Source: Toxorhynchites rutilus septentrionalis (lineage: Eukaryota > Arthropoda > Insecta > Diptera > Culicidae). Taken from it: 64,000 nucleotides of DNA. The translations under genes and the position numbers were made by a program. The stretch spans positions 283,127,803-283,191,802 of the forward strand of contig NC_073745.1 of assembly GCF_029784135.1 (NCBI RefSeq). The letters are read 5' to 3'. Under the pieces are notes generated by a model that was given only the letters and a program-made list of their open reading frames with translations, was not told the origin of the DNA and searched no databases. Below are positions 548-64,000 of the stretch, piece by piece (within the stretch, counting starts at the first letter, position 1; each line of letters opens with the position of its first letter).

Positions 548-803
548 TTTTGACGTAGGACTACGTCTTTCAGTTCTATACTGGGGTGTAAGTTCAAAGT
601 TTCGAAAACGAAAACGTTACGCCGGAGAACGAGATTTTGAGCGTTAATAGCTCCTGAACAACTGAACGAAATGGTATGATAAACACTTCATTCGAAAGAT
701 AAAATGTCTACCCGTTATATGCTTGTTACTTTTTGATCCAAAAACTTGTTTAAATAGCCCTAACATTGCTTTCAAAACAGGCTATTGAAATCACACCAAT
801 AGG

Positions 804-839
804 TATATAAGCGAGTGCCGCTCGGAAATCCACTCAGTT
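804..839 (+). promoter_or_regulatory. Putative Pol II core promoter inside the element
   Basis: TATATAAG (804-811) is followed by the arthropod initiator TCAGTT (834-839). The initiator A at 836 lies 32 bp from the start of the TATA box, which is the canonical spacing. Transcription would run rightwards into the tandem repeats. Function is inferred from motif spacing only. Confidence 0.45.
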
Positions 840-930
840 ATGATTGCGCAACGATTGAGGTGCGATCGCTGGAATGAATGGATGTCTCCCTAACACAGAC
901 TTCGAAACCAAGGAACCTGGGGAAATCTTA

Positions 931-1370
931 AGCAGCGGGTACTTTTATACTTGCTTGCGTTTCTGCAAATCGAAATGTTTCCCTAACACAGATTTCAAAA
1001 CCATGGAGCCTGAGGAAATCGATATTGCAAAATATATGCAAGCGGCGGGTACTTTTGTACTCGCTTGCGTTTCTGCAAATTGGAATGTCTTCCTAACACA
1101 GAATTCAAAATCATAAGGCCCGGGGGAATTGGCATTGCAAAATAGTTGCGAGCGGCGGGTACTTTTGTATTCGCTTGCGTTTCTGCAAATCGAAATGTTT
1201 CCCTAACACAGATTCCAAAACCATGGAGCCAGAGGAAATCGGCATTGCAAAATAGATGCAAGCTGTGGGTACTTTTGTACTCGCTTGCATTTTTGAAAAC
1301 CGGAATGGGTTTTCCCAATACAGATTCCGAAACCAAGAAGTTGGGAAAAACGGCATTGCAGATACATTCA
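931..1370 (+). repeat. Tandem repeat, 110-bp unit, four copies
   Basis: Units begin at 931, 1041, 1151 and 1261, exactly 110 bp apart. Each starts with AGCRGCGGGTACTTTTGTAC or a close variant and contains CTGCAAATCGAAATG and CCCTAACACAGA. Diverged units lie in the other members of the group at 5.0-5.25, 7.0-7.5, 46.4 and 63.2-63.8 kb, mostly in the opposite orientation. Short reading frames on both strands here are products of the repeat and not genes. Confidence 0.9.
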
Positions 1371-1973
1371 AGTCGACAATACTGCATTTTTACACTCCGG
1401 AATTCGTTTTGCTAACACGGTCTACAAAGCAGGTACAGATGCAACGCTTTGACTCGATTATTCAAGACTGTATTGGAAGATATCTCTTCATGTCGCCAGC
1501 TCGCTGAACTTCTACGCATAGCGTTTGATGATTAGGCAAAATGTTGACAACTATTTCCTGCGATAACTACTACCATAATGCATAAATTGACTTAAATTGG
1601 TATTTGTTTGCAATTAAATTAATTCATTCATTCACTAGTTTAATCAATACACACAAAAGATAGTTCTGCGCAGCGGCGATATCGTACCCAATGAGGAACA
1701 TTCGAGATGGGATTATTGCTAATTAAAGAAATACAATTGATTACTAAGTCAACGGCAGTCCTACGTCAACCTTGCAGTTATATCATAGGTATAACCCATC
1801 CATAGTTTTTTTTCAGAGCGCTTCTGTCCGGGTTCGAACAATGCAACACAAAATAAATGAAAACCATGAGAAGTTCTTTCAACTGGCATTGCAGCACGAA
1901 ATGCAAAAATAAATGCATAATTATCAGGTTGCTTTGAACAAACAAAACCCGAACAATACGAGTACTATGTTGT

Positions 1974-3504: not shown

Positions 3505-5686
3505 AAAAAAATCGTAAAGGATTGTATCTAGGATGCGACCGCATATTTTCGACATAGAACTACGCAGTTATATTATGCAATCCACTTGTTTATCACTTCT
3601 AATATTATTTTAGAATGCATCGGAATTTTTGCAATTATTTTCTTCGTTACAAATAAATTTAATGAACGTCCCTTACGTTTGATCACATATTTTGGTAGTC
3701 CTAGGCATCATGACTACCACCATGACTACGACTTGTCAAACGATCATTGTATTTTACTTTTCCCTCTGAAATTATTGAACATCTCATGTTTACGTAGCTC
3801 TCGAACGGCGAAAGTCATTCACCTCTAGTATCTGAAATGACGATTTTCCTAGGCTTCTCAGTTTAAAGGTACGTTTTAGGGAAGCATATTATAGATGGGC
3901 AAACCGTTCACGAACGATACGAAAGAACTAGTTCGCCGAAAAGAGTGAACGAACGGTCGTTCTTCCCACGAACTGATTGCGAGTGAACGGTTTGTGAACG
4001 CACTGATTCCGAAAGAACGGTTTGCGAGTGAACCGTTTGAGAGCGAGTGAACTGTATGGGAAAGAACTAATTGAGAGTGAACTGTTTGGGAACGAACTGT
4101 GTTTGCGAAGTGTTTGCGAAAGAACGAGTGCAGTTGAACTGATTTGCGCTGGATGGAATGGGTAAATAAAACGAGAACGCTTGTAAGAAAAATAAATCGA
4201 TATTGTCATTTACGAGCAAAATGCATGTAACGTAGCGTTTATTTTGTTGATATGTACTCAATTTTGAGGTTAAAAATTAAATTAGATTTTGGTAGTTTTG
4301 AAGGCAAAAGTATATATTTCCAATTTCATGTATTCTTTCAATTCCGCGTAACATTCATGTACTTCCTGATTATCAAAAAAAAAAAAAAAAATCAGGGGGA
4401 AGCCGGGACGATCCTTGAATTAGGTGAACATAAAATCTAATAGTAAGGGAAAGTTGAGAAAAAAGTTTTTTCGTTGCTTTCAATCCATTGTTTGGCCTAT
4501 TGTGTGTTATTGAGATTCTTTTTATGATTGATTGTTAGTGAAAATCGCTGCTGATTTTTTTCTATGAATGAACATTATGAAATATGATCTTACATGGAAC
4601 CTGTGTGTTGTCCAAACAGAAAATATGAAAAATTGCACATATTTTGTGCGCATCAAATTATTACATATAATATAATTTTGTCGGCCGATAAACATATTTT
4701 CACATTCAGTTTGCGAGTTTAAAGAATAAGCAGCTTATCTTTCCCCACTAAATTTCAAAAATATAAATCCCATATGTACACTATCCAATCCAACGATGTC
4801 AATTAATAGCTATCTATTGATGTTGGGTTCCAGCTAACATTCTATATTGTTCTTAATACCGCTGAACGAAAGAGCGAAAGAACGGTCCAAAAGAACTGAT
4901 TCACTTAGATGAACGGTTAGTGACTGAACCGCTCATCAAAGTGAACTGTTTTGCCCATCTCTAAAACATATTCCGGTCTGCACAACAGCAAGCGAGTAGA
5001 AAGGTACTCAACACCAAAAATACTCCCAACTTGCATGTTTCGACAGATGATGATGTTGATGTTGGATTAAAGAGGCTTTAAACTTTGCAGTCTTTCGACA
5101 GAGCGAATTCCCCCAGTCACATTGATTTGGAAGTCCGTGTTAGGGAAACAAAGCTCGGTGGGAACAAAAATACCCCTGACTTGCATGTATATTTGCAAAG
5201 CGGACTTCCACAGGTACATTACATTTTGAAGTCTGTGTTGGGGAAACCGTAAATCGGGCCAATCAAAACTTGGCAGTTAGGGCGTTTAGATAACGCTTGA
5301 AATTTTACAGTTATTTAATTGTTCATCTCATGAAAAATAACATTTTATTAATTGTGATAGACGCGTAAAAATATTTCCTATCAATTCATGCAAACATCTT
5401 TCCGATCTATTAAGAAATGTTCGATTTATAAGCATTCGAAATACGGGTAGGGTTGGCACACAAATCGGCAGAACAAATGCATGGGAAATAAGTTTTCATG
5501 AATTTAAACCGTTTAGAGATTAGTATAGCATATCAAACAAATCTCAATTTCCGATTCGATTGGTATGTCTATCATGAGAATTCGTTCACAGTGAAAATAG
5601 TTATTAACGTTAACTTTATTTCATTAAATCAGGACCTGTTTTCTGATTTGGCACCCTTCCTGAAAGACGTAAGTCTACGTCAAAAA
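3505..5686 (-). mobile_element. GACGTAG-ended element, copy 2, split by a nested insertion
   Basis: Read on the minus strand, the left end is at 5666-5681 (GACGTAAGTCTACGTC on the plus strand). It is followed by the same interior start as the copies at 39.4 and 48 kb (the segment matching GTGCCAAATCAGAAAACAGG). Then come diverged ~100-bp repeat units (about 4975-5250) of the type in copy 1. The right end, with the ATGCGACCGCAT and GACATAGAACTACGC blocks, lies at about 3505-3565. A separate element at 3890-4963 interrupts it. The copy therefore combines the 5' part of one subfamily with the repeat interior of another. Confidence 0.6.
3890..4963. mobile_element. hAT-like non-autonomous element with GAACGG repeats
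   Basis: Inverted ends TATAGATGGGCAAACCGTTC (left) and TAGAGATGGGCAAAACAGTTC-type (right, inverted) are flanked by 8-bp direct repeats AAGCATAT (3882-3889) and AAACATAT (4964-4971), seven of eight matching. An 8-bp duplication fits hAT. Both subterminal regions are full of short GAACGG/GAACTG repeats in both orientations (3895-4140, 4862-4945), which may be transposase-binding sites. No transposase ORF is present. It lies inside GACGTAG-ended copy 2. Confidence 0.7.
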
Positions 5687-6890: not shown

Positions 6891-6891
6891 G

Positions 6892-7804
6892 AAAAAAATG
6901 GGTGGGTTATATCTATGATATAACCGTAAGATTGACGTGGGACTACCTTAGCTTAGTATTGTTTGTATTGATTAAATTTTTGACTGAATGATACAATTTC
7001 CGAATTCAATTGAATTCAATATATTTGCGTTACGAGACCGTGTTGGGGAAACGCACTCTAGTTTGCACAAAAGCAAGCGAGTACAAAAGTATTCGCAGTT
7101 TGCATGTATTTGCAACACTTTGGCTTAGAAGTCTTTAGAGGGAAAACAGATTTCAGTCGGAACAGAAATACTCCCGACCTGCATGAATTTGCAATCCCAA
7201 CATCCCTAGACACCTTGGTTATGAAGCCTGTGTTGAGAAAACATATTTTAGTCGGAACAAAAATGCCCCCCACTTGCATGAATTTGCATTGCCAATTTTC
7301 CCAAGTTCCATGGATTTGAAACCTGTGTTAAGGAAACACATTTCAGTTGGAACAAAAATGCTCCGACTTGCATGTATTCGCAATGCCAACTTCCCCACGC
7401 TCCTTGGATTTAAAGTCTGTGTTAGGGAAACACATTTCGGTGGGAACAAAAGCTCCCCCTACTTTCATGTATTTGCAATGTCGATTTCTCCAACGCTGCT
7501 TGGTTTAGAAGTCTGTGTTAGGGAAACCGTAAAGCGGGCCTATCAAAACGAGGCAGTTAAGGCGTTTATATAACGCCTAACATTTTACAGTTATTCAATT
7601 ACTAATGAAAAATAACATTTTATTAGTTGTGATAGATGTGTAGAATAATTCCCTATCAATTGATGCAAACATCTCACCGATCCAGTAGAAAATGTTCGAG
7701 TTAAAAGCATTCGAAATCTTGCATTTTTTCCCCCTCATGTTCAGTGTTTATGTTTTCATTTTACCCCCCCATATACTCCGGTTAGACGTAGTCCCACGTC
7801 AAAA
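6892..7804 (-). mobile_element. GACGTAG-ended element, copy 3
   Basis: On the minus strand the element starts at GACGTAGTCCCACGTC (7785-7800, plus-strand reading) and ends just past a perfect stem-loop GGTTATAT-CTATG-ATATAACC (6905-6925). Next to that hairpin is the second core TTGACGTGGGACTACC (6932-6947). The interior holds five to six diverged repeat units. Both ends are intact and no ORF of substance exists. The hairpin and ends match the copy at 62.6-64 kb closely. Confidence 0.75.
7041..7540 (-). repeat. Tandem repeat, ~92-99 bp units
   Basis: The motif GTGTTAGGGAAAC or a variant recurs near 7041, 7126, 7225, 7317, 7411 and 7508, each followed by TCGGAACAAAAATG-like sequence and ACTTGCATG. 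These are homologous to the 110-bp units of copy 1 on the opposite strand but slightly shorter. Confidence 0.8.
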
Positions 7805-9269: not shown

Positions 9270-9416
9270 TTTTAATGTCCACTTTCCTCGATATAACATT
9301 TCTCCGAACGAAAAAAAAACCAACCAAGTCACAGTCACGTAAATGTTTACTCTTGCGGTTTGAAAACATTTGATGAAAAGTGGAACGAAGAGTTGCCAGA
9401 TTATTCCATTTATTCC

Positions 9417-14118: not shown

Positions 14119-14385
14119 GTCTAGATTGAGTTTCTCTTCATCAGAGCGGATCACCTGAAATATGAGTATGAGAGTTTTAAGGAGCTTGAACGATCAGATG
14201 ATGAACTATTCTAGTCAATGGTTATTCCAATTGACGTGACTAATGAATACAAATCTGTCTCTTCATTCAACCTGACTTCAATCCACACTTCTACTCCCCC
14301 TGACACGAATCTCGTCACCCATGTACACTATCTTATTTTTACGTCCATATAAAGTGGAATAAAAACTTGATTTCTGATGCAAAAA

Positions 14386-14900
14386 ACTAGAAGTGGGTTA
14401 TATCTTTGATATAACCGCAAAGTGGACGTAGGACAAACGTTGACATAGTATTTATTGGAACAATCATATAAATCCTAGACATTTCATATTTAAAATAAAG
14501 TGATTATCATACCACTTCGTTTAGCCGAATTATAAAACGCTCGCGAATAAAAGAATTATTAACGCTCAAAGAGGGAATCGATTCCTCCTCGGAAATACCC
14601 AGCGCAAATAGTACCCCCTCCCCAAGCCCCGACAATTGCAGTCATCCTTGATCCGGGGCCCCTCGGTTTTCGCTAAATGCTCCGTTAGGTCCGACTGCAG
14701 AGGAGAAATGGAATTGAAAAACGACAAACGGGAGAAAGAGATGTTGGGTTGAAAGGAGGTTGGTAGAAAACTTCTGCATTTTATCTTTCGAATAATGTGA
14801 TTATCATACCACTTCGTTTTTCCAGAAAGAGACTATTAATACTCAAAGGAGGAATCGAGTCTTCCGAGGAAATACCAAGCGCAAATTAGAATCGACATAA
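14386..14900 (-). mobile_element. GACGTAG-ended element, right-end fragment
   Basis: It has the typical right end: AGAAGTGG, the stem-loop GGTTATATCTTTGATATAACC (14396-14416), then a decayed core GTGGACGTAGGACAAACG. Interior sequence TGATTATCATACCACTTCGT occurs twice (about 14501-14520 and 14801-14820) and matches copies at 26.2 and 46.1 kb. No left end was found before the histone pseudogene. Confidence 0.6.
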
Positions 14901-26109: not shown

Positions 26110-26365
26110 AACTGAATGGATTTCCAGAGTTTATATACGGTTTAAATAACCTGTTTTCTAAGCAACTTTAAAGCTATTGAAACAAGTTTTCGGGTCAACA
26201 ATTAACAATCATATAACTCGTGGACATTTCGTCTTTCGAATGAAATGATTATCATACCACTCTGTTCAGCCGGAAAAAATATATTAACGTTCAAAACCTT
26301 GTCACTCTGTCGTTTTCGAAACTTTGAACTTACACCCCGGTACAGAAATGAAAAGTAGTTACACC
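26110..26365 (-). mobile_element. GACGTAG-ended element, left-part fragment
   Basis: The block CTTTCGAATGAAATGATTAT...CATACCACTCTGTTCAGCCGG, then GAACTTACACCCCGGTACAG, matches the reverse complement of copy 1 at 570-800 and the copy at 46.1-46.26 kb. The terminal core has decayed (AAAAGTAGTTACACC). Confidence 0.55.
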
Positions 26366-29411: not shown

Positions 29412-29470
29412 AAAAAAAATTGCGTAGTCCTACGTCCTAAGCGGTCGTGTCTCGGATACAACTCGAAGCG
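29412..29470 (+). mobile_element. GACGTAG-ended element, isolated right end
   Basis: GCGTAGTCCTACGTCCTAAG followed by CGGTCGTGTCTCGGATACAA matches the right ends at 50.31-50.36 kb (almost identical) and 41.18/49.11 kb. No left end lies upstream, so it is a fragment. Confidence 0.6.
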
Positions 29471-30292
29471 ATTTTTCAGCATGTAAAAATCTTATTATCT
29501 GAATAGTTACGTAGCGTTTTTTAGAAATTTTGAAAATTGTCAAATAAATTTAAATAACCAACTTCATTTGAATAAAACAGTTTTCTACAAAAATCGTAAT
29601 TTAAAAAATTATAGAAAAAACTATGAAAATTTATCAAAAACGTATCTATTAAGGATGATTCTCGCGTAACTTTTGAAAGCTATCGTTGATAACTAAGCGG
29701 TGAAAGCATTTCCTGATGTTTTTGAATATCAAAAGTGTAGAAGTGTATCCAACTATGAGGTAAAACCACCAGCTGAAAAAAACGCACTCAAAGATTCGTA
29801 CAGCCATGCTGCTACTCTTGAGATGACCCCATAGTTTTTACTGTAACCCTTCAACGAAATGGAATATCGAAAAATCCTTCCGGCACAACATTGCATAAAA
29901 ACCATTTTTTCGATTTATCAGAGTTTTTATTTAAGTCATTTATTTTTACAGGCTCAGTTACATAGGTTTAAACGAGCCGAACTCTTAGCTATACTTTTAT
30001 TAGTATATATCAACATGTTTCCTTAAATCTAGGGTTAATAAAGTAGGAAACCGATTACTCGCGGTCGACTCGAGATTAGAAGGGTGACATCGTTTCTTTT
30101 GGAAAAGGAGGGGATATAAGGATATTGTACAATGTTCACACTCGCATTCACACTCACGCTCATCATACTCAATTCTTAAATCTATTATATCTATTATGTA
30201 TATACATTTCAGCTTATTTTCTATAGTTAGTCAGAAGGGAAACAGACGCTCGCGAAGGAAAAAAAAAGGAGAGGATAAGGGTGTACGGACAA

Positions 30293-38760: not shown

Positions 38761-39788
38761 CGCAGTTTTGTAATGACTACAGAGATAAAGGTGTGTTCCA
38801 AATTTCAGATCAATCGGTCAACAAGAAGGGGGTCAAATTTCTACTAATGTGGGACATGTTACAAACATACAAACAGATTACAGGGCAAGCTAAATAAAAC
38901 CGTTTAATAACAACGATTCCGCTTAGAAACTATGAGGGTTTTATTTGTTTTTTCAATAATTTTCAAGTCTATAATAATCTTCGCATATTTTCAAATATCT
39001 TAAAAATAGAGACATGTAAAGACAATGTAAAGATTTGGCATCCCTGATTCGAGCGCTAAATTCTGTTTTTGACGTTTTGAGGGATGCGAGTGCGAGTAAA
39101 TTCAAAAAAATTTGAAGTAGCTCGCACGCCGAATCACACATGACACTAACTGGCATGATGTGTTCACACGGTGTGAGTAGCTGTACTGCAGTAACTGACT
39201 AGACCGACTCGTATGCTTACTCGCACCGTCTGAACCCGGCTTAAGGCTCGATCGGGCCTAACTAAACGATCATCTCCTATGTTACAAACTAACCGAGCGA
39301 TCGATAGAACACGGGTTTATTTGCGAGAGACTGTCGTTTCCGACGGCGGTAGGGGAACGATTCGGAATGGTCTTATGCAGAAAAAAACATCAATTTATCC
39401 GAATTTTTTTGACGCTGAACTACGTCTTTCATTAAGGGTGTCAAATCAGAAAACAGGTCACGTTTTTATGAAATAAAGTTAACGTTAATAACTATTTTTG
39501 CCGCGAACGGATTTTGGCGATTTACATACCAAACGAATCGGAAATTCCGTAAGATTTGTTTAATATGCCATACAATAGAATCCCCTGGTTAGTAAATGGT
39601 TAAAATTCATGAAAACTTTAAGTGTTTCTATTTTCCCATACATTTGTTCTGTCCATTTGAGTGCTTTCCCGAACAGAGATATCAATAACGAGCAACTTAT
39701 CGACGACCAACGGAGGGGAAATCGTATGATTTAAAGTCTCCGTGAACAAAGGAAAAGAAGAAGAATGAAGGGGAATACTTGCCTAGAG

Positions 39789-39825
39789 TATAAACAGTGG
39801 ATCTCGCTGAGGCAAACTTTCATTC
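39789..39825 (+). promoter_or_regulatory. Putative Pol II core promoter inside the element
   Basis: TATAAA (39789-39794) lies 33 bp before the A (39822) of TCATTC, a perfect match to the arthropod initiator TCAKTY. The same pair, identically spaced, is at 48321-48357 in the sister copy. Downstream sequence is not conserved between the two. Confidence 0.45.
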
Positions 39826-40121
39826 GGCATCGGACTGTTGAGCAATCCAGTTCACTTTGCTTTCGCTGCGCTTCGATCTAAGATTGGACCTCACCAGTGG
39901 TAATCCAGCTTGGAAATCGTCGTTTGATTTTTCGGTTCGTTTTTCGCGTTATTCGTATCGTGTGTTCTTCTTTCCGCGTCATAAATTGGACGCTTCGCGT
40001 AATGTGCGATGAGCAAGAAGAAGAGGTAGGCAGGCTTGAGCCCTGAAAGAACGAACGCATTGCCAGGGGCAATAAAATTTCGAGGTAAGCGTCATCTAAT
40101 GATGCACGCGGTGTTGGTGCA

Positions 40122-40364
40122 GTGAAAAGCGCTCGCACTGAACCGAGCCTTCGCAAATGTGACACCGCACCGAACAACAGCGAAGTAGGCGATTTCGGCG
40201 CGTCGGTCGAAAATGTAAACGCCCAGGCAGCAACCAAAATCATGCTCCCCCCGCTGGTGGTGAAGGCGGTCGCTCTTGACAAACTCATCAGCGAATTCGC
40301 ATCGATGGGTGTTACAGCAGAGTACAAGCTGTGTGGCATAATTCAGTCTTTTTCCAAGCAGTGA
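40122..40364 (+). pseudogene. Fragment resembling Jockey-type gag (pre-C2HC region)
   Basis: The 80-codon open frame includes KIMLPPLVVKAVALDKLISE and FASMGVTAEYKLCGI. This resembles the start of the pre-C2HC region of insect Jockey-type gag proteins (PPIVVK...L...YKL-RI). The frame ends soon after, and no zinc knuckles or reverse transcriptase follow. An upstream ATG near 40000 (MCDEQEEE) may be its old start. It sits in the unique interior of a GACGTAG-ended element, which suggests capture, or insertion followed by loss. The family call is from memory of the motif. Confidence 0.45.
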
Positions 40365-41244
40365 ACATTGTTTATTTTCTGCGTTCATAAGGTCTTCGTT
40401 GGTGCCTTTGAGAATGCATCAATGCATTAAACTGACGTTATGGCGAAGCAGACGTTAAGGTTGTGCACCAAAAAATTATTTGGGAATACCAAGCATCTTG
40501 AATGTCTTACCGGAATGTTATAAGTTATTTGGGTTCACGTGCCAGTCGCAAAACTACCTTCAACTAGGACTGCATTTGCGCTAATATTGATCATAATGAA
40601 GCATTGCTACTGTTTTCGAGGTTGTTATTAACAAAAAGAGTTTATTTCTCTTGTTTAGTCATCAAGAAAGTAAATGTTCTGGAATTTTGTATGTGATAAG
40701 GTTTCGCTTACCAGTAGCAAAACTTCCTCCACTAAGGGTGACAGCTGCGCTTCTCTCGAGTATGAGAAAGTAATGCAACTCTTTTCGAGGCCAGTAATAT
40801 TAACAGAAGCGATACTTGCAAGTGTTGTCATTGTTGTTGTTTACATGCGGTGCCAAAGATATATTGATGTAGTTATGAGATATGGAATAATGGTGCTGGT
40901 GCAATATGTATATAATCGACTGTAGCCGAGTCTATGTCAATTTCGAAAAAGGCCACCGGAATAGCCTTCGAGGTAAATTTTCAATGCATTGACATGAAAT
41001 AAATTGCGACATACGATTGTTTTGCGAGGGCAAGAATCAATCATCAATCAATTACCGTCAACTGATTCTACAATGAAAAAAACAATTTCGGAGATTATTC
41101 TACTAAGCAGTTGCTTCTAAAATTTCACAGCATTATAGAATAATATCCGAAGGTATAAATGAGCAACTTATATAAAATAACAGCGTAGTTCTACGTCAAC
41201 AATGCGGTCGTATCTTGGACACAACCTCCTATAATTTTTTTGTT

Positions 41245-45135: not shown

Positions 45136-45517
45136 TTTACCAAACTGAAGAAGAATGTAAACATGTTGGACATCGAAATAAAGAGGAGGGTTTCAGCTGC
45201 AATGTAAGTGAAATATTTCATTGATTAGTGAAATATTTCATATACTACACTGAAGTGTCCGAAATTTAACGTGGACAGGCTTTAGTCGGATCTGGAATGT
45301 TTTGACAGCGGCTTTCGTTCATAATTCAAGTCATATTGACACAACTGCTACCATATTCAATTTTACACTCACACTTGTGCTAAAAGTATTACAATGCAAC
45401 CAACATTAAAGTTCCAAATTTGAATTCTATTTATATTCTATCAAATATAAGTTCTATTCAGTTCATTGAAACATCAATATCCAACCAATCCATCGAAAAA
45501 TTCTTATTGGAACAAAA

Positions 45518-46267
45518 AAAAAATAGAAGTGGGTTATATCTGTGATATAACCGCAATGTAGACGTAGAACTACCGCTGGCTCTGTAATCATTTGTTTGAA
45601 ATTACATCTGAATCAATTCTCAATGAATGAATGAATAATTATTTCTGAAGATTGCTGGAAATTTTCCTTGTTAGTGTGTGAGTGATTGAGTATGAAATTG
45701 TTATTAACATGAAATTTAACTATTTCGAACTTGTTGGTGGTGTGGAAAACAAACCGTTGGGTTTGCGTGGTTCTGCAAAAGCAACTGATGAAGTTTGATA
45801 CATAATTCTATTTTGTTCTCGTGAGAATAATACATGAGAGTTTTCATGACCTCTCCATGCGGAAGCAGAATAGAAACTGATACGATTGGATACGATTGCA
45901 TCACTAAAACCGAATGCGCAAATCTTCCTTTGCTCGAGCGCATTCGTCGAAATCACTTTTGCGTCCGTGTTTGGGAACACATTCCGATCACCACAAAAGC
46001 AATCATCATCAATGCGCTAGATTGTTATGATTTAAATAGCCTGTTTTCAAAGCAATTTTTATTGAAACGATTTTTTGAATCAATAAGTGACGCTCATATG
46101 ACTCTTTGACATTTTATCTTTCGAATGATATGATTATCATACCACACCATTCAGCCGGTAAAGAGGTATAACGTTCAAAACCTTGCACTCCAGCGTCACT
46201 CTCTCGTATTCGAAACTTTGACCTTACACCCCGGTATAGAAATGAAAGACGTAGTCCTACGTCAAAA
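45518..46267 (-). mobile_element. GACGTAG-ended element, short complete copy
   Basis: The right end, read leftwards, is GAAGTGGGTTATATCTGTGA with the stem-loop at 45532-45552 and the core GTAGACGTAGAACTACCG just inside. The left end is GACGTAGTCCTACGTC (46248-46263) followed by AAAACA. It is about 750 bp with no tandem array. Both ends match copy 1, so it is an internally deleted relative. Confidence 0.75.
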
Positions 46268-46339: not shown

Positions 46340-47018
46340 GCTTGTTAAACTATCGACCACGAGGGTATTTACAGTCTGTTTTCCCCCAGGCACCTTGAAT
46401 TGGAAATCTCTGTTAGGGAACACATATCGGTTTGCAATGTTGATTTCTCCAGGCACCTTGGTTTTAGAGTCTGCTGTTTCATAAAATATATAATTTCTTT
46501 CATTTTCACTGTAATGAAATATTATGGAGTGCTCAGAATGATTGATGCAAAAATCTCGTAAATCTACCAATGTACCTTCAATTTCGACCAATCAGAACAA
46601 GATATTTGCGTTTGCAGATTTTCCGTTTGTTGATAATTAGTTTCATATAATATATTATCCTATTCATTGTGGTGAATTTTTATGGAGTGCTCAGATTGAT
46701 TGATGCAAAGATCTCGTAAATCTATCAGGAAATAACTGAACTGCCGCTTGTGTCGCGTTAATTTCGACCAATCAGAAAAGGGTATTTCCGTTATGATAGA
46801 GGATGAGATGTTTCAATTGTTCGATAGTTAATTTCATGACATGTATTATTTTATTCAATTAAAAAAATGGTTATGGAATGCCGAAATCGATTGACGCAAA
46901 AATCTCATCACTCCATTATGAAATGACTGAGCAATAAGCGTTTGAAATTGCACTTTTTTCACGATGCGATCGATTTTCGTCCCCCAATATGTTCCTGAAA
47001 GACGTAATCCTACATCAA
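46340..47018 (-). mobile_element. GACGTAG-ended element, left part, with two repeat types
   Basis: The left core is GACGTAATCCTACATC (47001-47016). The interior has two remnants of the ~100-bp unit (about 46380-46470: CTCTGTTAGGGAACACATAT, CCAGGCACCTTGG) and then a different ~160-190 bp tandem repeat. No right end was found before copy 45518-46267, against which it abuts. Confidence 0.55.
46480..46990 (-). repeat. Tandem repeat, ~160-190 bp unit, three copies
   Basis: TTTCATAAAATATATAATTT, then TTATGGAGTGCTCAGA, TTGATGCAAAAATCTCGTAA and ATTTCGACCAATCAGAA recur starting near 46484, 46644 and 46835. A further unit lies at about 51355-51490 beside another GACGTAG end. Confidence 0.7.
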
Positions 47019-47959
47019 GACAAAGGAAAATGATTCAAATCAGTTTTGAAATAATATTGAAATTTCAAAATAGTATAACCAGTTTCTTCCTATCGAATAT
47101 GTATTTATTTCGAATTAATTTCGAAATTTCTTCACCGTTTTCAGATATTGTAACGACTTCTATGACATGATCATGGTAGTAATTGAGAAAAATAACTTTC
47201 TAACGTCTTGGATCCAGAGACTCGCAACTTTTATTGTTCTTCCTTTGCTCTTTATTGAGACCTTTTCATTCTCACCAAATAGAGAGCAGGATCTTTCAAC
47301 TTCAAGTTTCACAGAATTCACGATTCATCAGTTATCCAGCTAGCGACCAGACGGCAACGAGATGTTCCAAATGGCTTTTTTCGAGGAGCGTTTCGTTTAG
47401 TTTTCCAAATTTTCAAAGCTAGAGGCGACAGAGAATGAGAATGAGGGAATTTTTAGCCTCTATAATTTAAACCATTATTATTACTATCAAAGTCCTAGTC
47501 TCACTCCAGCTAGCAGACAGCAGCCTCTCACAATGCTGATGTCAGAAACAGCTGATTTGCTCGATACAAAGGAAGAACGGACGATGGACACAGTGATACA
47601 ATTTTTTTCGGTGGAGGCACCGTGTTGATTTTCATATCGTCTGTTGAAAAGTGCTTCTGTATTTTTGCATCACATCATTTCTGCATCTTTACTGGAGTGT
47701 AAGTTTAATATTTCGGAAACGAGAGCATTACATTTGAAGTGCAGGGATTAAAGAAATAACACCTCGTTGCCGATTGAGAGAAGTGGTATGACAATCTCTG
47801 TGGAAAAATAAAAGGTGTATGATGTTTGTTGCTTTTTGACCCAAAAACTTTTCCCATAGCTTGGAGAGAGCGTTGCGTGACTTATGCGGAAAGGAGCGAG
47901 TCGAGCTGTCATCGAGTGCGGACGTGTTTTCTGTTGCTTCGCACACAGTTTTATTTGAG

Positions 47960-49168
47960 TTTTTTGACGTAGAACTACGTCTTTCATTAAGGGTGCCAAA
48001 TCAGAAAACAGGTCATGTTTTTATGAAATAAAGTTAACATTAATAATTATTTTTGCCGCGAACGGATTTTGGCGATTTACCTACCAAACGAATTGGAAAT
48101 TCCCTAAGATTTGTTTGATATGCTATACATTACAATCCCATAGTCTATATATGGCATTCCCATTTCCTCATACATTTGTTCTGTCCATTTGTGTGCTTTC
48201 CCGACCAGAGCTGTCAATAACGAGCAACTTATCGACGAGCAACGAAGGGGAAACCGCAAGATATAAAGTCTCTGTGAACAAAGGAAAAGAAGAAGAACGA
48301 AGTGGAATATTTGCCTAGAGTATAAACAGTGGATCTCGCCGAGGCAAACTTTCATTCTTCGTGAGGAAATCGACTGAACAACATCGTTGCTGGGCGAGCT
48401 GGACAGCGAGGGATCGAATGCCTTTCTCAAGGTAATGGGGATGGAGGAGTAATATTATGGATAAAGTAAAGTTTTCCAAGGGCCTTTTTGAAGGTTAGAG
48501 ACGAATGAACTGAAGAAGTTTAAAGTCTGAAGCAAGGAAGGAAGGCAAACTTTCAGTATCGTTCTGTATTCAGAGCAATGAATATCGCTTAACATTGTTT
48601 GTTTGTTTTCTGTCATCAATGCATTGAACTGACGCTATGGTGAAGCAGGTGTTAAGGTTGTGCACCAAAAAATTATTTGGGGAATACCAAGTTATTCAAT
48701 GAATTATATTGAGTTATTAATGCTGCTTTCAACTAGGATTGCATTTGCGCGAATCTTGATCATAATGACGCAGTGCTACTCTTTTCGAGGTTGTTGAGAT
48801 TAACAGATAGAGTTTATTTCGTTTATTTAGTCACCAAGAAAGTAAATATCGTTCTGAAATGTTGTATGTGATTTGGTTTCGCTAGTAGCAAAACTTTCTC
48901 CACTAAGGAAGACAGCTGCGCTTATCTCGAGCATGTATTTTTCTGCGAGTACAAGAATGAATCATCAAACAATTATCGTCAAATGATTGTACAATAAAAA
49001 AAACATATTTCAGGGCAACCAAACTGGTAGAATAGTTATTTCAAGATTTTCGTAGCATTATAAAATAATATCCGCAATTATAAACAAGCGACTTGAATTA
49101 AACTACAGCGTAGTTCTACGTCAACAATGCGGTCGTGCCTTGAACACAACCTCTTATATTTTTTTTTA
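47960..49168 (+). mobile_element. GACGTAG-ended element, sister copy without gag fragment
   Basis: Left core GACGTAGAACTACGTC (47966-47981) and right core GCGTAGTTCTACGTC (49108-49122), followed by AACAATGCGGTCGTGCC and ACACAACCTC. It aligns with 39405-41240 at both ends but lacks the central unique segment. TATAAA at 48321 and TCATTC at 48352 form the same core promoter pair. It is inserted beside or within a remnant of copy-1-type sequence (47694-47960). Confidence 0.75.
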
Positions 49169-49444: not shown

Positions 49445-50372
49445 TTTTTGACGTAGGACTACGTCTTACATTGAGGGTGCCAAATCAGAAAACAGGTCAC
49501 GTTTTAATGAAATAAAGTTAACGTTAATAACTATTTTTGCTGCGAACAGATTTTAACGCTTTGCATACTAATCGAATCGGAAATTTTCTAAGATTTGTTT
49601 GATATGCTATACATTACAATCCCATAGTCTGTATATGGTTTAAATTGATGAAAATTGGAAGCATTCCCATTTCCCCATACATTTGTTCTGTCCATTTGTG
49701 TGCTTTCCCAAACAGAAATGTCAATAACGGGCAACTTATGCAGCCGTTAGAATAGAAACAACCAAGGGGATAGCGAAAAGAGAATATTTGCGAAGTAAAT
49801 TCCACCCTTGCATAGTAAGTAAGTTGTCGCTAGCGTATAAGTATTGCATCTTCTCTGAGGAAAATTCTCAGAATATGTCTGTGCCCAAAACAACAAAGGT
49901 CGCTTATTTTGCTCGTTTTGTGTATTATGTTATCCCTTGAGCTGTGAACGCTAGTGAATGTTTCACATGAAGTGTGTTTCTATGTTTCATTCATAGCGCT
50001 GCAACTGGGTGCATCTGTTAGACGCGTGTTTGATGCTTGTTGAATGGCAATGTACGGAAGACGCCTCTCGTTAAATATTCAGTGCATTGCGCGCATTGAT
50101 ATAAAGAAACAAATTGCGACATATGATCAATTAGTGTATTGTTCTCCCAAAGGCAAGAAAGAACCGTTGTTTCTCGAAATGATTCTACAAAACCACGCAA
50201 GCCATTAAAACTTTTCAGGGTCCCCGGAACTTTTTACTAAAGAGTTATTTATGGAATTTCGACGTATTCGCAAATAATATCCGAAATGATAAACATTGAG
50301 AAAAAAAGACTACGTAGTCCTACGTTCTAAGCGGCCGTGTCTCGGATACAACCTCTACTCTACCTACAAGCT
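49445..50372 (+). mobile_element. GACGTAG-ended element, third sister copy
   Basis: Left core GACGTAGGACTACGTC (49450-49465), followed by the shared block GGGTGCCAAATCAGAAAACA. Right core CTACGTAGTCCTACGT (50310-50325), followed by CTAAGCGGCCGTGTCTCGG. It lies only about 280 bp from the previous copy in the same orientation. The interior has diverged. Confidence 0.7.
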
Positions 50373-50935: not shown

Positions 50936-51354
50936 CAAAAATAACCTTCCGAGGTCGGACATTGAACAATAAGAACAATAAGTGTTATGTCTTGTCTCGC
51001 GTCGCGTTTTATAAATATGTGCTTGCTCTGGCCAAACGCAGTTTTTATTTTGCTACCATGTTGAACGAACTTGCAAAATTTTTCGCCTCAGCTTGAACTG
51101 AGAGCCTGTAGCGAAGCAGAAAATAAATACTAAATAGTACGTTTTCATACCGTTGTTATCAAATAACAACAATTATGAGGAATAATTATGACGAGGCTGA
51201 TTTGGAAAACATAAGTTAAAGGCGAATGAACTCTCTGTGAATGTATCCAATGAAGAACTGGGAGATTTATTGGCACAGATAGCTTGTGCCAATCGACTAA
51301 TCAGAAAGTGGCATTTTCGATTACATAGTGATTGATATTTTTTTAATTGTTCGT

Positions 51355-51572
51355 TGGTTAGTTTCATAAAATATATAATTTTTTTCATTGTAATATATTG
51401 TTAGGGAGTACCAAACCGATTGATGCAAAAATCTCGTAAATCCATCAGGGAACGACTGAGGAATGAGCGCTCGAAATTGTATAATTTTCGTGATGTGACA
51501 GATAGTTGAAATTTTCAATTTTTCAATTCGCATCCCCAATTTGTTAGCGAAAGACGTAATTCTACGTAAAAA
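51355..51572 (-). mobile_element. GACGTAG-ended element, left-end fragment
   Basis: The core GACGTAATTCTACGTA (51553-51568) is followed by AAAAAAA. The adjoining interior is the ~160-190 bp repeat unit also found at 46.5-47.0 kb. No right end was found. Confidence 0.6.
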
Positions 51573-57142: not shown

Positions 57143-57485
57143 ATTGTCTCTATAGTAAATGTGCTCTTTTAATATGTTCGTTGTATTAAACCGCCATGTT
57201 CATGAAATTTTATGAATTCGCTTATAATTTTCAACAACTTTTCAAAATACACCATTATGATAAAAATATAGGTTTGGGAGTTACGTTCAAAAATATTGAA
57301 GACATGTGGGTTAAAACATTTAAACATAACATGGGTCCTATGACTCCTAAACATAAATTTTCACCATAATGATGTATTTGGAAAAATTGTTGAAAATTAT
57401 AAGCAAATTCATAAAATTTCATGAACATGACGGTATAACACGACAAACATATTAAAAGAGCCTATTCACCATAAAAAAGACAATG
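57143..57485. repeat. Fold-back (long palindrome), arms ~135 bp
   Basis: Left arm blocks GCTCTTTTAATATGTTCGTT, CATGTTCATGAAATTTTATG and CTTATAATTTTCAACAACTT reappear as reverse complements on the right (57366-57462), centred near 57313 with a diverged loop. It is a snap-back structure without an ORF. Confidence 0.8.
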
Positions 57486-57745: not shown

Positions 57746-59040
57746 AAGGGTGTGTCACATCAAATTGCATCACGGAAAAAACGCTGTAGAAATTTTATTT
57801 TTAGGAATTAAAGCTTCAGCTTTCGCTTATAATCAGATAAGAGTGTATAGATCACATTGGCCATGCTTCACTGTCAATTTTTCGTAAATTTGGAAAAATG
57901 TCGTCGAACGAAAAAGAGCGTCGTGAATTAATCCTGTGCACTCATTTCGAGAATCCGGAGTTGTCACATCGGGACATCGGTAAGATGCTGGGAATCGTCC
58001 AATCCACGGTCAGCAGAGTACTAAAACGATACTTCGAGAACCTAACCATCGACCGGAAGGTGAAGAACGACAAAAATGGATGCTCCGTCAGTGAAAAAGA
58101 TCACAAGCGCGTAGTTAAGCAGTTTAGATGTGATCCGAGAAGTTCGGTCCGGGATGTCGCCAATATTTAAGCTGAATTTGTCAAGTTCATTCGTCCAGCG
58201 GACCAAGCAGCGGGAGGGCCTGCGTACATACAAGGTTCAGAAGGCTCCTAACTGCGACGAAAGGCAAAACATGGTGGGGAAGACGCGAGCCCGGAAGCTG
58301 AAATGCTGACGAAGCCGCATTGCCTGGTAATGGACGACGAAACCTACGTCAAAGCGGACTTTCGTCAGCTGCCGGGCCTGTTGTTCTTTTCCGCAGAGGA
58401 CAAATTCAGCGTTCCGGAGGAGATTCGCAAGCAGAAACTATCCAAGTTTGCCAAAAAGTACATGGTGTGGTAAGCGATCTGCTCTTGCGGAAAGCGGAGC
58501 GCCCCCTTCGCGATGACCGGCACGGTAAACGGCAGGTTTACCTTAAGGAGTGCCTACAGAAGCGCTTACTACCACTATTGAAGCAGCACGAGGGCCCGAC
58601 CATCTTCTGGCCGGATCTCGCTTCGTGCCACTATTCAAAGGACGTGTTGGAGGGGTACGAAGCCAACGGGGTCACATTCGTGCCAAAGGAAATGAACCCG
58701 CCCAACGCGCCGGAGCTTCGCCCAACAGAGAAATATTGGGCGATTATGAAGCAGGCCCTCCGGAAGAACCCAAAAGTTGTCAAATCGGAGGCGGACTTCA
58801 ACAGAAAATGGATTTCTGTTAAAAAAAAAACTACAACCTGACGTTGTACAGAACCTCATGGACGGGGTAAAGAGGAAGGTGCGAGCATACGGGCTTGGGC
58901 TCGAAGTATGAATAAAAAGAAAATGCCAAAAGTTGTTTAATAGTTTTTATTTTACTGTCTAAAATTTTCAAAAGGATCGGTCTACTGGGCGAATTTCTAC
59001 AGCATTTTTTCCGTGATGCAATTTGATGTGACACACCCTT
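57746..59040 (+). mobile_element. ITmD37E (DD37E Tc1/mariner) element, both ends present
   Basis: Terminal inverted repeats AAGGGTGTGTCACATCAAAT continuing to TGCATCACGG and CTGTAGAAATT at both ends (57746 and 59040), flanked by TA (57744-57745, 59041-59042). The 1,295-bp length is typical of the family. It contains one broken transposase gene. A second copy of its 3' part and right end lies at 60191-60442 because of the downstream tandem duplication. Confidence 0.92.
57898..58911 (+). pseudogene. ITmD37E transposase, broken by stops and frameshifts
   Basis: It starts MSSNEKERRELILCTHFENP. The HTH blocks DIGKMLGIVQSTVSRVLKRY and SSVRDVAN are followed by a stop at about 58168. The catalytic residues are in different frames: MDDETYVKADFRQLPG (58.33 kb), IFWPDLASCHYSKDVLEGYE (58.60 kb) and LRPTEKYWAIMKQALRK (58.73 kb). 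Exactly 37 residues separate the second Asp and the Glu, which defines DD37E. The C-terminus VQNLMDGVKRKVRAYGLG ends at TGA 58911. At least four lesions, including stops near 58.17 and 58.47 kb, make it non-functional. Confidence 0.9.
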
Positions 59041-61593
59041 TATATATATTTCGATGTTCACTTTACAGAGTTTGGATGTGGAATGAATTCTTCTCGGTAG
59101 CGCTCTGGTATTTATACCAAATTTGGAGGGAGGGAGGTATTTATCTCGTAGATGATGGAATTCGATGTCTGTGTTGGAGAAATGGAACGGCTGGCTTTTG
59201 GTTGGTTCGCTCCACCTAATGCGTTGTACGCAACAGACAATAAATTTGATTTTTTCAAATATCTCGAGAATGACTGCATTTAGAAGAAGATTGATAAAGA
59301 GCTTTTTTTATTGTAAATCACAATTTGTGGCTAAAAATGATTGTTCACATACAAAAATTCGAAGATTCGAAATTCATAAAAAATCGATGTTCCACAAACT
59401 TTGCCAAAAATTGTTTTACCATCTTGGACTTAGTTTTTTAAATTTTCTACATGACTTCTATTTTATATGAAAAAAAAAATGTATTTGATATATTGCAAAT
59501 TAAAGTTTTTTTTGTAAATTACGATAGCGCGACAGCGAGTTCAATAGTAAATCTATAGGCCTTCCCGGAATTTGTCAATAAATGATAGGCTCATGCACTT
59601 TTGTTTTGGTCATGGCTTTCACATTATCTGATTACTGATGTAAACGACCTTGAAGATGGATAGTTTAATGATTTTTGTATTGATCAAACATAGTTTTCAT
59701 GCTGAAATATCCTTTTTTCGTGTTTGGAACTCATTTTTAGTCCATTATTGCGTTATCCGCGATTTTTGTTATTCGCGATGAGCTAGCCAGTCTATTCCGC
59801 TGATAATCGGGGTTCTACTGTTGATGGTGGACGCAATAGCAAAAAAAAAAAACACAAAAAGCTAATCGAACAGGAATTTCTCGCTCCAGGACTAGACCTC
59901 CTGGGTCTCGGGGGGATTGGTATTGTGTCTTCTCCGTTAGAGGTGACACTCCGATAGTGTCTATACTTCATGTTGAAAGTGGCTGGACTGCACATTTGCC
60001 GGCAAGCATGTTCTGACACATTTTCTAATCCGCTATGAATTGATTATGGTTAACCTTTTTGCCCAATGCAAACTGACTAGTGTAGATTAACTTGATCCTA
60101 TCGCTCTCTTTTCATCCTCAATTATGTGATGATAGTATAGTCTATCGGTGGGAATTCCGATGTCCGATTAAGTTCGTGGCGTAAGAAGGAAGGCGGACTT
60201 CAACAGAAAATGGATTTCTGTTAAAAAAAAAACTACAACCTGACGTTGTACAGAACCTCATGGACGGGGTAAAGAGGAAGGTGCGAGCATACGGGCTTGG
60301 GCTCGAAGTATGAATAAAAAGAAAATGCCAAAAGTTGTTTAATAGTTTTTATTTTACTGTCTAAAATTTTCAAAAGGATCGGTCTACTGGGCGAATTTCT
60401 ACAGCATTTTTTCCGTGATGCAATTTGATGTGACACACCCTTTATATATATTTCGATGTTCACTTTACAGAGTTTGGATGTGGAATGAATTCTTCTCGGT
60501 AGCGCTCTGGTATTTATACCAAATTTGGAGGGAGGGAGGTATTTATCTCGTAGATGATGGAATTCGATGTCTGTGTTGGAGAAATGGAACGGCTGGCTTT
60601 TGGTTGGTTCGCTCCACCTAATGCGTTGTACGCAACAGACAATAAATTTGATTTTTTCAAATATCTCGGGAATGACTGCATTTAGAAGAAGATTGATAAA
60701 GAGCTTTTTTTATTGTAAATCACAATTTGTGGCTAAAAATGATTGTTCACATACAAAAATTCGAAGATTCGAAATTCATAAAAAATCGATGTTCCACAAA
60801 CTTTGCCAAAAATTGTTTTACCATCTTGGACTTAGTTTTTTAAATTTTCTACATGACTTCTATTTTATATGAAAAAAAAAATGTATTTGATATATTGCAA
60901 ATTAAAGTTTTTTTTGTAAATTACGATAGCGCGACAGCGAGTTCAATAGTAAATCTATAGGCCTTCCCGGAATTTGTCAATAAATGATAGGCTCATGCAC
61001 TTTTGTTTTGGTCATGGCTTTCACATTATCTGATTACTGATGTAAACGACCTTGAAGATGGATAGTTTAATGATTTTTGTATTGATCAAACATAGTTTTC
61101 ATGCTGAAATATCCTTTTTTCGTGTTTGGAACTCATTTTTAGTCCATTATTGCGTTATCCGCGATTTTTGTTATTCGCGATGAGCTAGCCAGTCTATTCC
61201 GCTGATAATCGGGGTTCTACTGTTGATGGTGGACGCAATAGCAAAAAAAAAAAAACACAAAAAGCTAATCGAACAGGAATTTCTCGCTCCAGGACTAGAC
61301 CTCCTGGGTCTCGGGGGGATTGGTATTGTGTCTTCTCCGTTAGAGGTGACACTCCGATAGTGTCTATACTTCATGTTGAAAGTGGCTGGACTGCACATTT
61401 GCCGGCAAGCATGTTCTGACACATTTTCTAATCCGCTATGAATTGATTATGGTTAACCTTTTTGCCCAATGCAAACTGACTAGTGTAGATTAACTTGATC
61501 CTATCGCTCTCTTTTCATCCTCAATTATGTGATGATAGTATAGTCTATCGGTGGGAATTCCGATGTCCGATTAAGTTCGTGGCGTAAGAAGGA
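58789..61593 (+). repeat. Near-identical 1.4-kb tandem duplication
   Basis: 58789-60190 (1,402 bp) is repeated as 60191-61593 (1,403 bp). I noticed one substitution (CTCGAGAATGAC near 59266 versus CTCGGGAATGAC) and a length change in one poly-A run (near 59842 versus 61246). The unit starts inside the ITmD37E 3' coding part and runs past its right end, the inverted 309-bp-type repeat and a pogo-like end (59745-59822 / 61150-61222). The junction has essentially no homology. It is either a very recent duplication or an assembly artefact. Confidence 0.95.
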
Positions 61594-61794
61594 ACGAACG
61601 TAACAGTCAACATAGCAGTTTCTTGTCTCTGTTGACACTGCTGGGACACCTATCAAGCAAAATTAGCCTAGTCAAAAAAACATCGGTTGTTTCTACTTTA
61701 TACTACTCATGCGTGATTTACATAGAGCAATGCATAATTTTTTTTAGCATAAATTACAAATATTTGAGAAATTTTTTTTTGTGGGGATTTGAAG

Positions 61795-62420
61795 TATGGA
61801 AATATGATAGTCTGGGTGTTCGACACATTCACTCGAATCTTCCAGGTGTTGTTATACTCAAACAGGACATCAAGGCCCCGCTGAGGTTTTGTTGTCAGAG
61901 TACGCTTTCCTTATAGATTATCTGCAAACAGAGATTACTGGCCATCATCTGATAAGGGAGAAATATCTGACGTATATATGTTGAATTACAGGGGACCTAG
62001 GATGCTGTCTTGGGGTACCCCTGCGTTGATGTTTAGTTCCTTATGATTTTTATTTTTTTTAAATGTGGAAATGTCTATATATAGTATATATTTTTTAATG
62101 TGAAAATGCCGCTGATGTAGCTTAAACACCAGACCATCATGCCAGAAATTGTCGAACCCATTTTAGACGTCTAACAATGCCATTGCAGTTTTGACGACGG
62201 TTTTTTTGCCTGATGTTGTTTGTTACTCTGACGAGCTGATGAATTCATGGGTCAACCACCCCAAAATCCAAACTTCTCGTCAGGTAGCCTGGATCATATC
62301 AGTTTCTTAAAAATTTTGGAGAGAGCAGAGAGTAAGCTCTTTCTCCGTCTTAAGAATGGGTACTACTTTAGCTAATTTCCCCTTTCGAGGAGAAGTAGCC
62401 AAGTTGTCAGTATCGATTGA
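61795..62420 (-). pseudogene. Jockey-type reverse transcriptase fragment
   Basis: Minus-strand blocks in shifting frames are KTAMALLDV then FDNFWHDGLVFKLHQRHF (RT motif with the first catalytic Asp), LNINAGVPQDSILGPL with FNIYTSDISPL, SLFADN (the usual FADD now with Asn) and WKIRVNVS-TQTIIFPY. The order and wording fit the Jockey clade. Several stops and frameshifts and loss of the second catalytic Asp make it dead. Endonuclease and gag are absent. Confidence 0.8.
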
Positions 62421-62626
62421 AGATCGATGTTAAATGTCTATATAACCTGGGGTTTAGGTGTTTCAGCTCGATGTTAATGATGTCAGTAATTTTTAGACCA
62501 AAAAGAAAAAAAAAATGATTTTACGAACCATCGGTAATCTTTCAAAAATTATAGCTCAAAAACGACGGAAATCACATCTCTGATTTTTGGATATGTTATG
62601 TAAAAATAACTTCATCCTTCAAGAAA

Positions 62627-64000
62627 AAAAAAATGGGTGGGTTATATCTATGATATAAACGCAAGGTTGACGTGGGACTACCTTAGCTTATCAATCATTT
62701 GTTTGTATTGATTAAATTTTTGATGGAATGAAACAATTCCCGAATTCAATTGAATTCAATATATTTGATTTGTAAGTAAAAATATTGTTAAATGTCATGT
62801 AAGGTCAATTCATGCATTGTGATAGTAAATTTAATGACAGTCCTTCTACGGTTGGTATGATGCCTAGAACAAAATTTGTGAACGGGAGAATTTTCAAACG
62901 ATTATTTTATTTTACATTTGCTTCTGAAGTTTGCATCTCAAGTGTACGTACTTATCGAACCGCGAATTCGCTTGATTATATGAACTTCAGGCACTCAGTT
63001 CCGATTTTGACATGTATGTCGAACGCATATTGTTTAATGAATAGGCGTTATCGCAGCAAATGGTTAACAACTTTTTGCTTAATCATCAAATGGTATGCGT
63101 AAAAATTCAATGAGCGGAAGATATGAAGGTATATCCTTCAATACAAAAATGAATAACCGAGCCAAAGCGTTGTGTTCGTACCCGCTTTTGTAATCCGTGC
63201 TAGGAAAACACTTTGCGGAGTGCAAAAAAAATGCGGGTGCAGAGATACCCCCGACTTGCATGAATCAAAAACTTCAACTTCTACTTTTTATACTATAAAG
63301 GATTTAAACTTGAAAGTTCATTCGTCTCTAGTGTCTGCACGATTTTCCCAGGTTCCTAAGTTTAGGAGACCGTGTTAAAGAAACATATTCTAGTTTGCCC
63401 AAAGGCAAGCGCGTACAAAAGTACTCGAAGTTTGCATTTATTTGCAGAGCCGATTTTCCCAGACATTTTGGTTTTGAAGTCTGTGTTAAGCAAACACATT
63501 TCAGTAGCCACTGACTTGCATGAATTTACAATGCTAATTTCCTCAGACACCTTGGTTCTGAAGTCTGTGTTGGGGAAACACATTTCAGTCGGAACAAAAA
63601 TGCCCCCGACGTACATGTATTTGGAATGCCAATTTCCCCACGCTCCTTGGATTTAAAGTCTGTGTTAGGGAAACACATTTCAGTCGGAACAAAAATACCC
63701 CCGACTTTCATGTATTTGCAATGCTGATTTACCCAAGGCTGCTTGGGTTTGATGGCTGTGTTAGGGAAATCGTAGATCGGGCCAATCAAAATGAGGCAGT
63801 TATGCCGTTTAGATAACGCTTAAAATTTTACAGTTATTTAATTGTTTATCTAATGAAATATAACATTATTAATTGCGATAGAAGCATAGAAATATTCCCT
63901 ATCAATTGATGCAAACATCTTTCCGATCCAGTAAGAAATGTTCGAGTTATAAGCATTTGGAATCTTTCATTTTTTCCTGCAGGTTCTATGTTTAGGTTTT
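62627..64000 (-). mobile_element. GACGTAG-ended element, runs off the window
   Basis: The right end is at 62627-62685, with the stem-loop GGTTATATCTATGATATAAAC (62640-62660) and the core TTGACGTGGGACTACC. The interior has the same flanking blocks as copy 3 (CCAATCAAAATGAGGCAGTT, ATGCAAACATCTTTCCGATC) and about five repeat units. Comparison with copy 3 suggests the left end lies a few tens of bases beyond position 64000. Confidence 0.75.
63205..63770 (-). repeat. Tandem repeat, ~95-110 bp unit
   Basis: GTCTGTGTTAGGGAAACACA or variants recur near 63372, 63477, 63561, 63657 and 63750, with CAGTCGGAACAAAAATGCCC and GACTTGCATG-type blocks between. It is homologous to arrays at 0.93-1.37 and 7.04-7.54 kb. 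Confidence 0.8.

What the first reader, a model, noticed from the sequence alone, without database searches (positions are those of the whole stretch)
548..64000. A transposon group defined by GACGTAG-NN-CTACGTC ends and a 3' hairpin, with interchangeable interiors
At least twelve sites (0.55-1.81, 3.5-5.69, 6.89-7.80, 14.39, 26.1-26.4, 29.41, 39.41-41.24, 45.52-46.27, 46.3-47.02, 47.96-49.17, 49.45-50.37, 51.36-51.57, 62.63-64.0 kb) share the same ends. On the left, a T-run plus the 16-bp near-palindrome is terminal. On the right, the reverse-complement core is followed by about 45 bp ending in either the hairpin GGTTATAT-N5-ATATAACC or the related TGCGGTCGTG...ACACAACCTC, then a T-run. I see no target duplication and no transposase. 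Asymmetric inverted ends, a 3' hairpin, internal minisatellites and T-rich sites match Helentron-derived HINE/DINE-1 structure. This group may be an unclassified mosquito equivalent.
Basis: partly seen in the sequence, partly recalled or inferred. Interest (0 to 1): 0.85.

Follow-up and report, generated by a model that had tools for sequence, protein, structure and literature searches.

The report
Mosquito rolling-circle transposons (Helentron-derived HINEs)
The repeated DNA pieces in this stretch of what appears to be an elephant mosquito's chromosome are short, gene-less copies of a known kind of rolling-circle jumping gene (Helentron), and full-length copies that carry the enzyme gene and have matching ends were found elsewhere in the same genome.

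Summary
In detail: 17 near-palindromes in the window against 0.69 expected, and 32,321 exact ones in the genome against 2 for the reversed control. The genome is Toxorhynchites rutilus septentrionalis, inferred from names and contig lengths. Two Helentron lineages, H2 (12,495 bp) and H3 (14,885 bp), carry the same T4-GACGTAGNNCTACGTC left end and the same kind of right end (CTACGTC, hairpin, T-run; the outer half of their right palindrome is degenerate). They encode Rep, PIF1 helicase and an endonuclease-like C-terminus with the Helentron signature. Window element 548-1811 is 90% identical to H2 over its first 311 bp. Four sampled HINEs match H3 at both ends. The hairpin shows compensatory changes. 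Empty sites show no flank duplication. Ends and interiors are partly mixed between subfamilies. It is not unclassified: Culex Helentrons with palindromic subTIRs were described in 2014 (PMC4067079). So this is a new, abundant, apparently recent member of a known kind. No closely matching coding partner was found for subfamilies B to E.

The parts
548..1811 (+). HINE, subfamily A (partner H2), complete; minisatellite 930-1335
   Evidence: 311 bp at the left 90% and 70 bp at the right 84% identical to Helentron H2
548..567 (+). left end: TTTT + 16-bp palindrome (subTIR)
1752..1811 (+). right end: degenerate palindrome (CTACGTC kept), hairpin, T-run
3505..5685 (-). HINE, subfamily C (called C4), complete; interior 5103-5442 shared with subfamily B
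6891..7804 (-). HINE, subfamily B, complete; minisatellite 7144-7527
   Evidence: left end H3-like (0.77), right end H2-like (0.78)
14381..14438 (-). right end of a truncated A-type element; a stretch similar to part of H2 with a histone H3-like fragment follows at 14718-15629
26141..26353 (-). left-end body of an A-type element, palindrome lost
29420..29477 (+). right end only, D type
39407..41241 (+). HINE, subfamily C, complete
45517..46267 (-). HINE, subfamily A, complete
46365..47020 (-). left part of an E-type element
47962..49166 (+). HINE, subfamily C, complete
49446..50359 (+). HINE with C-like left end and D-type right end; no T-run at its right end
51325..51572 (-). left part of an E-type element
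62625..64000 (-). HINE, subfamily B; left end beyond the window at L005:4051

Best explanation
The elements are HINEs: non-autonomous Helentrons, moved in trans by Helentrons of the same genome. Shown: full-length H2 and H3 have matching ends and encode Rep, PIF1 helicase and an endonuclease-like domain; the 3' stem is kept through paired changes; insertions lie in T-rich sites without duplication of non-T flank. Inferred from the Helitron/Helentron literature: the HUH Rep nicks at the T-run beside the 5' palindrome, the helicase peels off one strand, the 3' hairpin marks the end, and the single-stranded copy joins between T residues of a new site. Because the end signals are short and the interior is free, interiors fill with minisatellites, gene fragments and pieces of other subfamilies.
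For: H2 exists in two copies (99.98% over the 8,630 bp compared). Their identity begins at TTTTGACGTAGGACTACGTC (left) and stops after CCTGTTTTT (right). H3's right limit is set by two copies and its left end by homology to HINEs. Pfam: in H3 Helitron_like_N, PIF1 and Exo_endo_phos are all above cut-off; in H2 Exo_endo_phos is just below (24.2 against 24.5 bits). The Helentron-diagnostic Rep motif FKR-IEFQHRGSPHAH is in H2 and H3; H1, a canonical Helitron of the same genome, has IEFQKRGMPHLH (rule). H2 is 61% identical to a Culex protein and 47% to a Galendromus protein over 99% of its length. Four of 4 complete sampled H3-type HINEs share H3's left end (0.97-0.99 over 120 bp); three of the 4 match its right end at 0.97-1.00; L006 scores 0.71 because the sequence before CTACGTC differs, but holds the exact 41-bp right end. 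Stem 88.5% paired against 30-43% when slid, two pairs changed on both sides. Empty sites.
Against: No transposition was observed. No coding partner at 80% or more over the right end was found for B, C, D or E; A1 (0.78) and A2 (0.80) are borderline with H2. In H2 and H3 the right-hand palindrome has 3 and 4 mismatches, so only its CTACGTC half matches the left end well. A target duplication made only of Ts cannot be ruled out. The five extra bases at the L022 empty sites were inferred from match lengths, not read. Of the two joined-flank genome searches that were answered, one (L016) found no empty site. In the stem test, two of five measures are no better than shuffles (166 and 500 of 500), and one pair is unpaired in 16 of 26 distinct rows. 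No RPA ORF was sought. H2's full frame needs an intron or frame change near its start (by eye).
Confidence: 0.96

Rival explanations
1. Helitron2-type element: Rep-helicase without endonuclease, asymmetric TIRs and palindromes at both ends.
For: Palindromes and asymmetric ends fit (definition in PMC4067079).
Against: H2 and H3 have an Exo_endo_phos-like C-terminus and the Helentron Rep signature.
Confidence: 0.02
2. MITE-like derivatives of a DDE transposon without visible target duplication.
For: Short, non-coding, very numerous, with inverted subterminal repeats.
Against: Matching ends on Rep-Hel elements; empty sites longer, not shorter, than the joined flanks.
Confidence: 0.01
3. The palindrome with its 2-bp centre is a site-specific recombinase core (Crypton-like or DIRS-like).
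For: Perfect 7-bp arms around 2 bp at several left ends.
Against: The ends flank Rep-Hel-endonuclease genes, and right-hand copies are degenerate. No recombinase was searched for.
Confidence: 0.01

Closest known systems
Culex quinquefasciatus Helentron-Cq-31A/32A and HINE-Cq (Thomas et al. 2014, PMC4067079)
   Same: Palindromic subTIRs, 3' stem-loop, string of Ts, TT insertion, tandem repeats in HINEs, Rep-Hel-endonuclease partner; a Culex protein (P0024) is 61% identical to H2 over 99%. The Figure 4 legend mentions histone gene fragments, without saying in which elements.
   Different: Their subTIR letters are in a supplement I could not read, so identity of the palindrome is untested; here the autonomous copies are 12.5 and 14.9 kb long
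Metaseiulus occidentalis HINE-Mo and Helentron-Mo (same paper)
   Same: 12-15 bp palindromic subTIRs 2-4 nt from the 5' end and 38-60 bp from the 3' end; here 16 bp, 4 nt, and 41-43 bp in H2, H3 and 548-1811
   Different: Protein of Galendromus occidentalis (the same mite; synonym recalled) only 47% identical
Drosophila DINE-1
   Same: subTIRs, 3' stem-loop, repeats in the core, TT target
   Different: DINE-1 subTIRs are not palindromic and DINE-1 has a separate 5' inverted repeat
ATon of Aedes aegypti (PMC3422177)
   Same: Numerous non-autonomous mosquito elements; whether the target is duplicated is unclear there too
   Different: True TIRs starting ATAGGCC, target AT, no partner known

Membership tests
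Helentron / HINE | Rep (HUH) + PIF1 helicase + C-terminal endonuclease in one protein of a partner with the same ends | tested here: met
   H2 endonuclease hit just under the Pfam cut-off, H3 above
Helentron / HINE | Diagnostic Rep motif with S between G and P and F/Y-x-R upstream | tested here: met
   against the rule read
Helentron / HINE | subTIR near the 5' end and about 38-60 bp from the 3' end | tested here: met
   41-43 bp in H2, H3 and 548-1811; right copies degenerate in their outer half
Helentron / HINE | Stem-loop near the 3' end | tested here: met
Helentron / HINE | Insertion in T-rich site without target modification | tested here: met
   a T-only duplication not excluded
Helentron / HINE | Subfamily rule: at least 80% over the last 60 bp with the partner | tested here: inconclusive
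   (last 62 bp): L022-H2 0.97; three of four H3-type HINEs 0.97-1.00, L006 0.71; A1 0.78 and A2 0.80 with H2; B, C, D, E below 0.80 to H2 and H3
Helentron / HINE | RPA ORF carried by some Helentrons | not tested
   no targeted search
Canonical Helitron | CTRR 3' end (recalled), no endonuclease, L rather than S before P in Rep motif 2 | tested here: not met
   H2 and H3 have S, an endonuclease-like domain and T-run ends; H1 of this genome ends CTAGT and has M at that place
Helitron2 | Single Rep-Hel ORF without endonuclease | tested here: not met
ATon | ATAGGCC termini, AT target | tested here: not met

The most novel reading that the evidence does not exclude
The shared 16-bp palindrome acts as a common, exchangeable end signal, so one Helentron protein pool mobilises many subfamilies, and 5' ends, interiors and 3' hairpins are reshuffled between lineages. 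Subfamily B has an H3-like left end (0.67-0.77) and an H2-like right end (0.75-0.78, against 0.64-0.69 to H3); D has a C-like left end with its own right end. An unseen native partner with the same combination would explain it as well.
Probability: 0.3. Interest if true: 0.5.

Novelty: new member of a known kind. Interest (0 to 1): 0.36.

Why it matters
It gives a very large set of anonymous repeats of a mosquito genome a class and a coding partner. Near-identical coding copies together with many near-identical ends (40 of 40 scored 5' ends, out of 1,448 candidates, at 99% or more to H2; 5,469 exact H3-type 41-bp right ends) point to recent activity, which makes Helentron transposition testable. 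The end-mixing offers a natural data set on which end signals a Helentron protein accepts.

Tried and rejected
Rfam and tRNA scans of the window gave nothing. The joined flanks of L016 gave no empty site: the matches, 40 scored of 487 candidates, were the filled site's own two halves and short repeats. L013's flank alignment with L017 was too weak to use. L005's flank alignment was not used as an empty site because another element lies directly beside it. H1 was rejected as the partner: canonical Helitron, no palindrome at its 3' end. A literature search for four spellings of the palindrome found 0 papers. 'Helentron' plus 'mosquito' found 8 papers, 6 listed, none about this species by title. 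'Toxorhynchites rutilus' plus 'transposable element' and 'genome' found 2, neither on this subject by title. Further listings. The DINE-1 paper PMC4067079 was read as passages, Results part 1 of 3 and section 8; the ATon paper PMC3422177 as parts 1 and 2 of 4; other papers only as listings. Rows dropped before counts: the L005 duplicate of the window's end (28 hits to 27), three of the 22 pairings that run over a nearer left end (window 47020 and 51572 to 45517, and L012:696), leaving 19.

Full report
Observation. The near-palindrome GACGTAGNNCTACGTC occurs 17 times in the window with up to 3 mismatches against 0.69 expected. In the whole genome (902,557,243 bases, 514 contigs) the exact form occurs 32,321 times against 2 for the reversed control. 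Profiles of the left and right ends pair into 8 copies with both ends that lie in the window or run out of it, plus 5 partial ones. Left ends read TTTTGACGTAGNNCTACGTC, with few exceptions; right ends read a poorer palindrome in which CTACGTC is the kept part, hairpin, short spacer and, except at 50359, a T-run.

Organism. The best protein match of the partner gene is named Toxorhynchites rutilus septentrionalis and lies on a contig of 345,355,930 bases, the length of the window's contig C2. A second match lies on 333,097,027 bases, the length of C3. This is an inference from lengths and names.

Partner. A search for Helitron_like_N gave 132 matches (150 of 1,313 candidates scored, so a lower bound). 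I fetched three pairs of similar copies, 6 of those 132 places. H1 is a canonical Helitron (motif IEFQKRGMPHLH, 3' end CTAGT). H2 and H3 are Helentrons. H2's two copies are identical at 99.98% up to ...CCCACTTCCTGTTTTT, where they part. On the left they share TTTTGACGTAGGACTACGTCTTTC... and the match stops before the four Ts. Copy 1 runs C2:320563411-320575905 (12,495 bp). Copy 2 runs C3:178025799-178042237; it has a different, apparently longer, repeat array, and not all of it was read. H3 runs C2:6592958-6607842 (14,885 bp). Its right end is set by two copies, its left end by homology to HINEs. The right-hand palindromes of H2 and H3 have 3 and 4 mismatches. The proteins have Helitron_like_N, PIF1 and Exo_endo_phos matches, the last just under cut-off in H2. 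They align with Culex and Galendromus Helentron-like proteins from the DUF6570 region to the endonuclease-like end and carry the F-x-R...RGSPHAH signature that PMC4067079 gives for Helentrons.

Link to the window's elements. Element 548-1811 matches H2 over 311 bp at 90% (left) and 70 bp at 84% (right); 45517-46267 matches over 246 bp at 82% and 184 bp at 74%. HINE L022, found in a systematically placed stretch, matches H2 at 0.92 (left) and 0.97 (right). Four complete H3-type HINEs (L006, L008a, L013, L016) share H3's left end (0.97-0.99). At the right end L013 matches 218 bp at 97%, L016 220 bp at 95%, L008a 102 bp at 98%, and L006 224 bp at 87%. L006 and L008a come from stretches chosen because they hold palindromes; L013 and L016 from systematically placed ones. 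The H3-type 41-bp right end occurs 5,469 times exactly (2,679 + 2,790), control 0. Forty of 40 scored copies of H2's first 300 bp (1,448 candidates) are 99-100% identical.

Hairpin. In 27 right ends (26 distinct) a 9-pair stem is formed in 88.5% of cells against 30-43% when slid by 1-3 columns. Two pairs show changes on both sides (11 and 8 sequences), and 0 of 500 shuffles reach the covariation score or the number of doubly changed cells. But the number of pairs with a double change was reached by 166 of 500 shuffles, further pair types by 500 of 500, and one pair is unpaired in 16 of 26 rows. The consensus fold has 6 pairs.

Target site. The L014 element at 9008-9869 sits in a repeat of which nine unfilled relatives were aligned from held letters. 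Those with clear alignment show a T-rich run at the junction and no repeated flank; some have gaps there. For L022, joined flanks of 200 bp match four other places over all 200 bases at 96-98% and a fifth over 59-200 at 94%. Each of these five is 5 bp longer than the matched query. Since my limits give 4 and 5 Ts to the element, this fits a short T-run in the empty site and speaks against a duplication of the flanks. The five letters themselves were not read. L016's joined flanks gave no empty site.

Mixing. Left ends fall into unrelated groups (A with H2; B with H3; C with D; E at 0.56-0.66 to B1, B2 and the H3 type). Right ends group differently: B is nearer to the H2-type right end (0.75-0.78) than to H3 (0.64-0.69). 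Window 5103-5442, inside a C-type element, matches B interiors at 79-82%. The 95-110 bp minisatellite is common to A, B, C4 and E. A histone H3-like fragment lies at 15130-15621 (Pfam Histone, E 4e-13; that it is H3 is by eye), in a stretch 75% similar to part of H2; H2's own histone-like peptide is below the Pfam cut-off. The Figure 4 legend of PMC4067079 also mentions histone gene fragments.

Abundance. In 16 stretches of 10 kb placed at round coordinates (L009-L024) there are 12 left-end hits (E below 1e-4, two of them without the palindrome) and 9 right-end hits (E below 1e-5), in 7 of 16 stretches. The 8 complete copies cover 10,569 of 160,000 bases, 6.6%. This is a rough figure from a small sample.

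Verdict. This is a HINE group with its Helentron partners: a new, abundant, apparently recent member of a known kind. The mechanism is rolling-circle by family; the steps of nicking and strand transfer are inferred, not shown here.

Noticed in passing
window 58789-60191 and 60191-61594: A 1.4-kb head-to-tail duplication, 99.86% identical: recent or an assembly artefact.
   Followed up: no
window 14718-15629: Histone-like (H3 by eye) pseudogene fragment in a stretch similar to part of Helentron H2; possible gene capture.
   Followed up: partly
L031 and L027:1-3389; L034, L032: Both Helentrons carry several kb of repeated sequence 5' of the coding region (about 1.33 kb units in H3), and H3-type HINEs keep pieces of it.
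   Followed up: partly
L025, L026: A canonical Helitron on two chromosomes, 100% identical over the 7,389 bp compared, ending CTAGT, with a protease-like upstream ORF (by eye).
   Followed up: no
window 30293-35397 (-): Long ORFs that look like a non-LTR retrotransposon (by eye).
   Followed up: no
window 57151-57473: Self-complementary stretch of about 323 bp at 79%.
   Followed up: no
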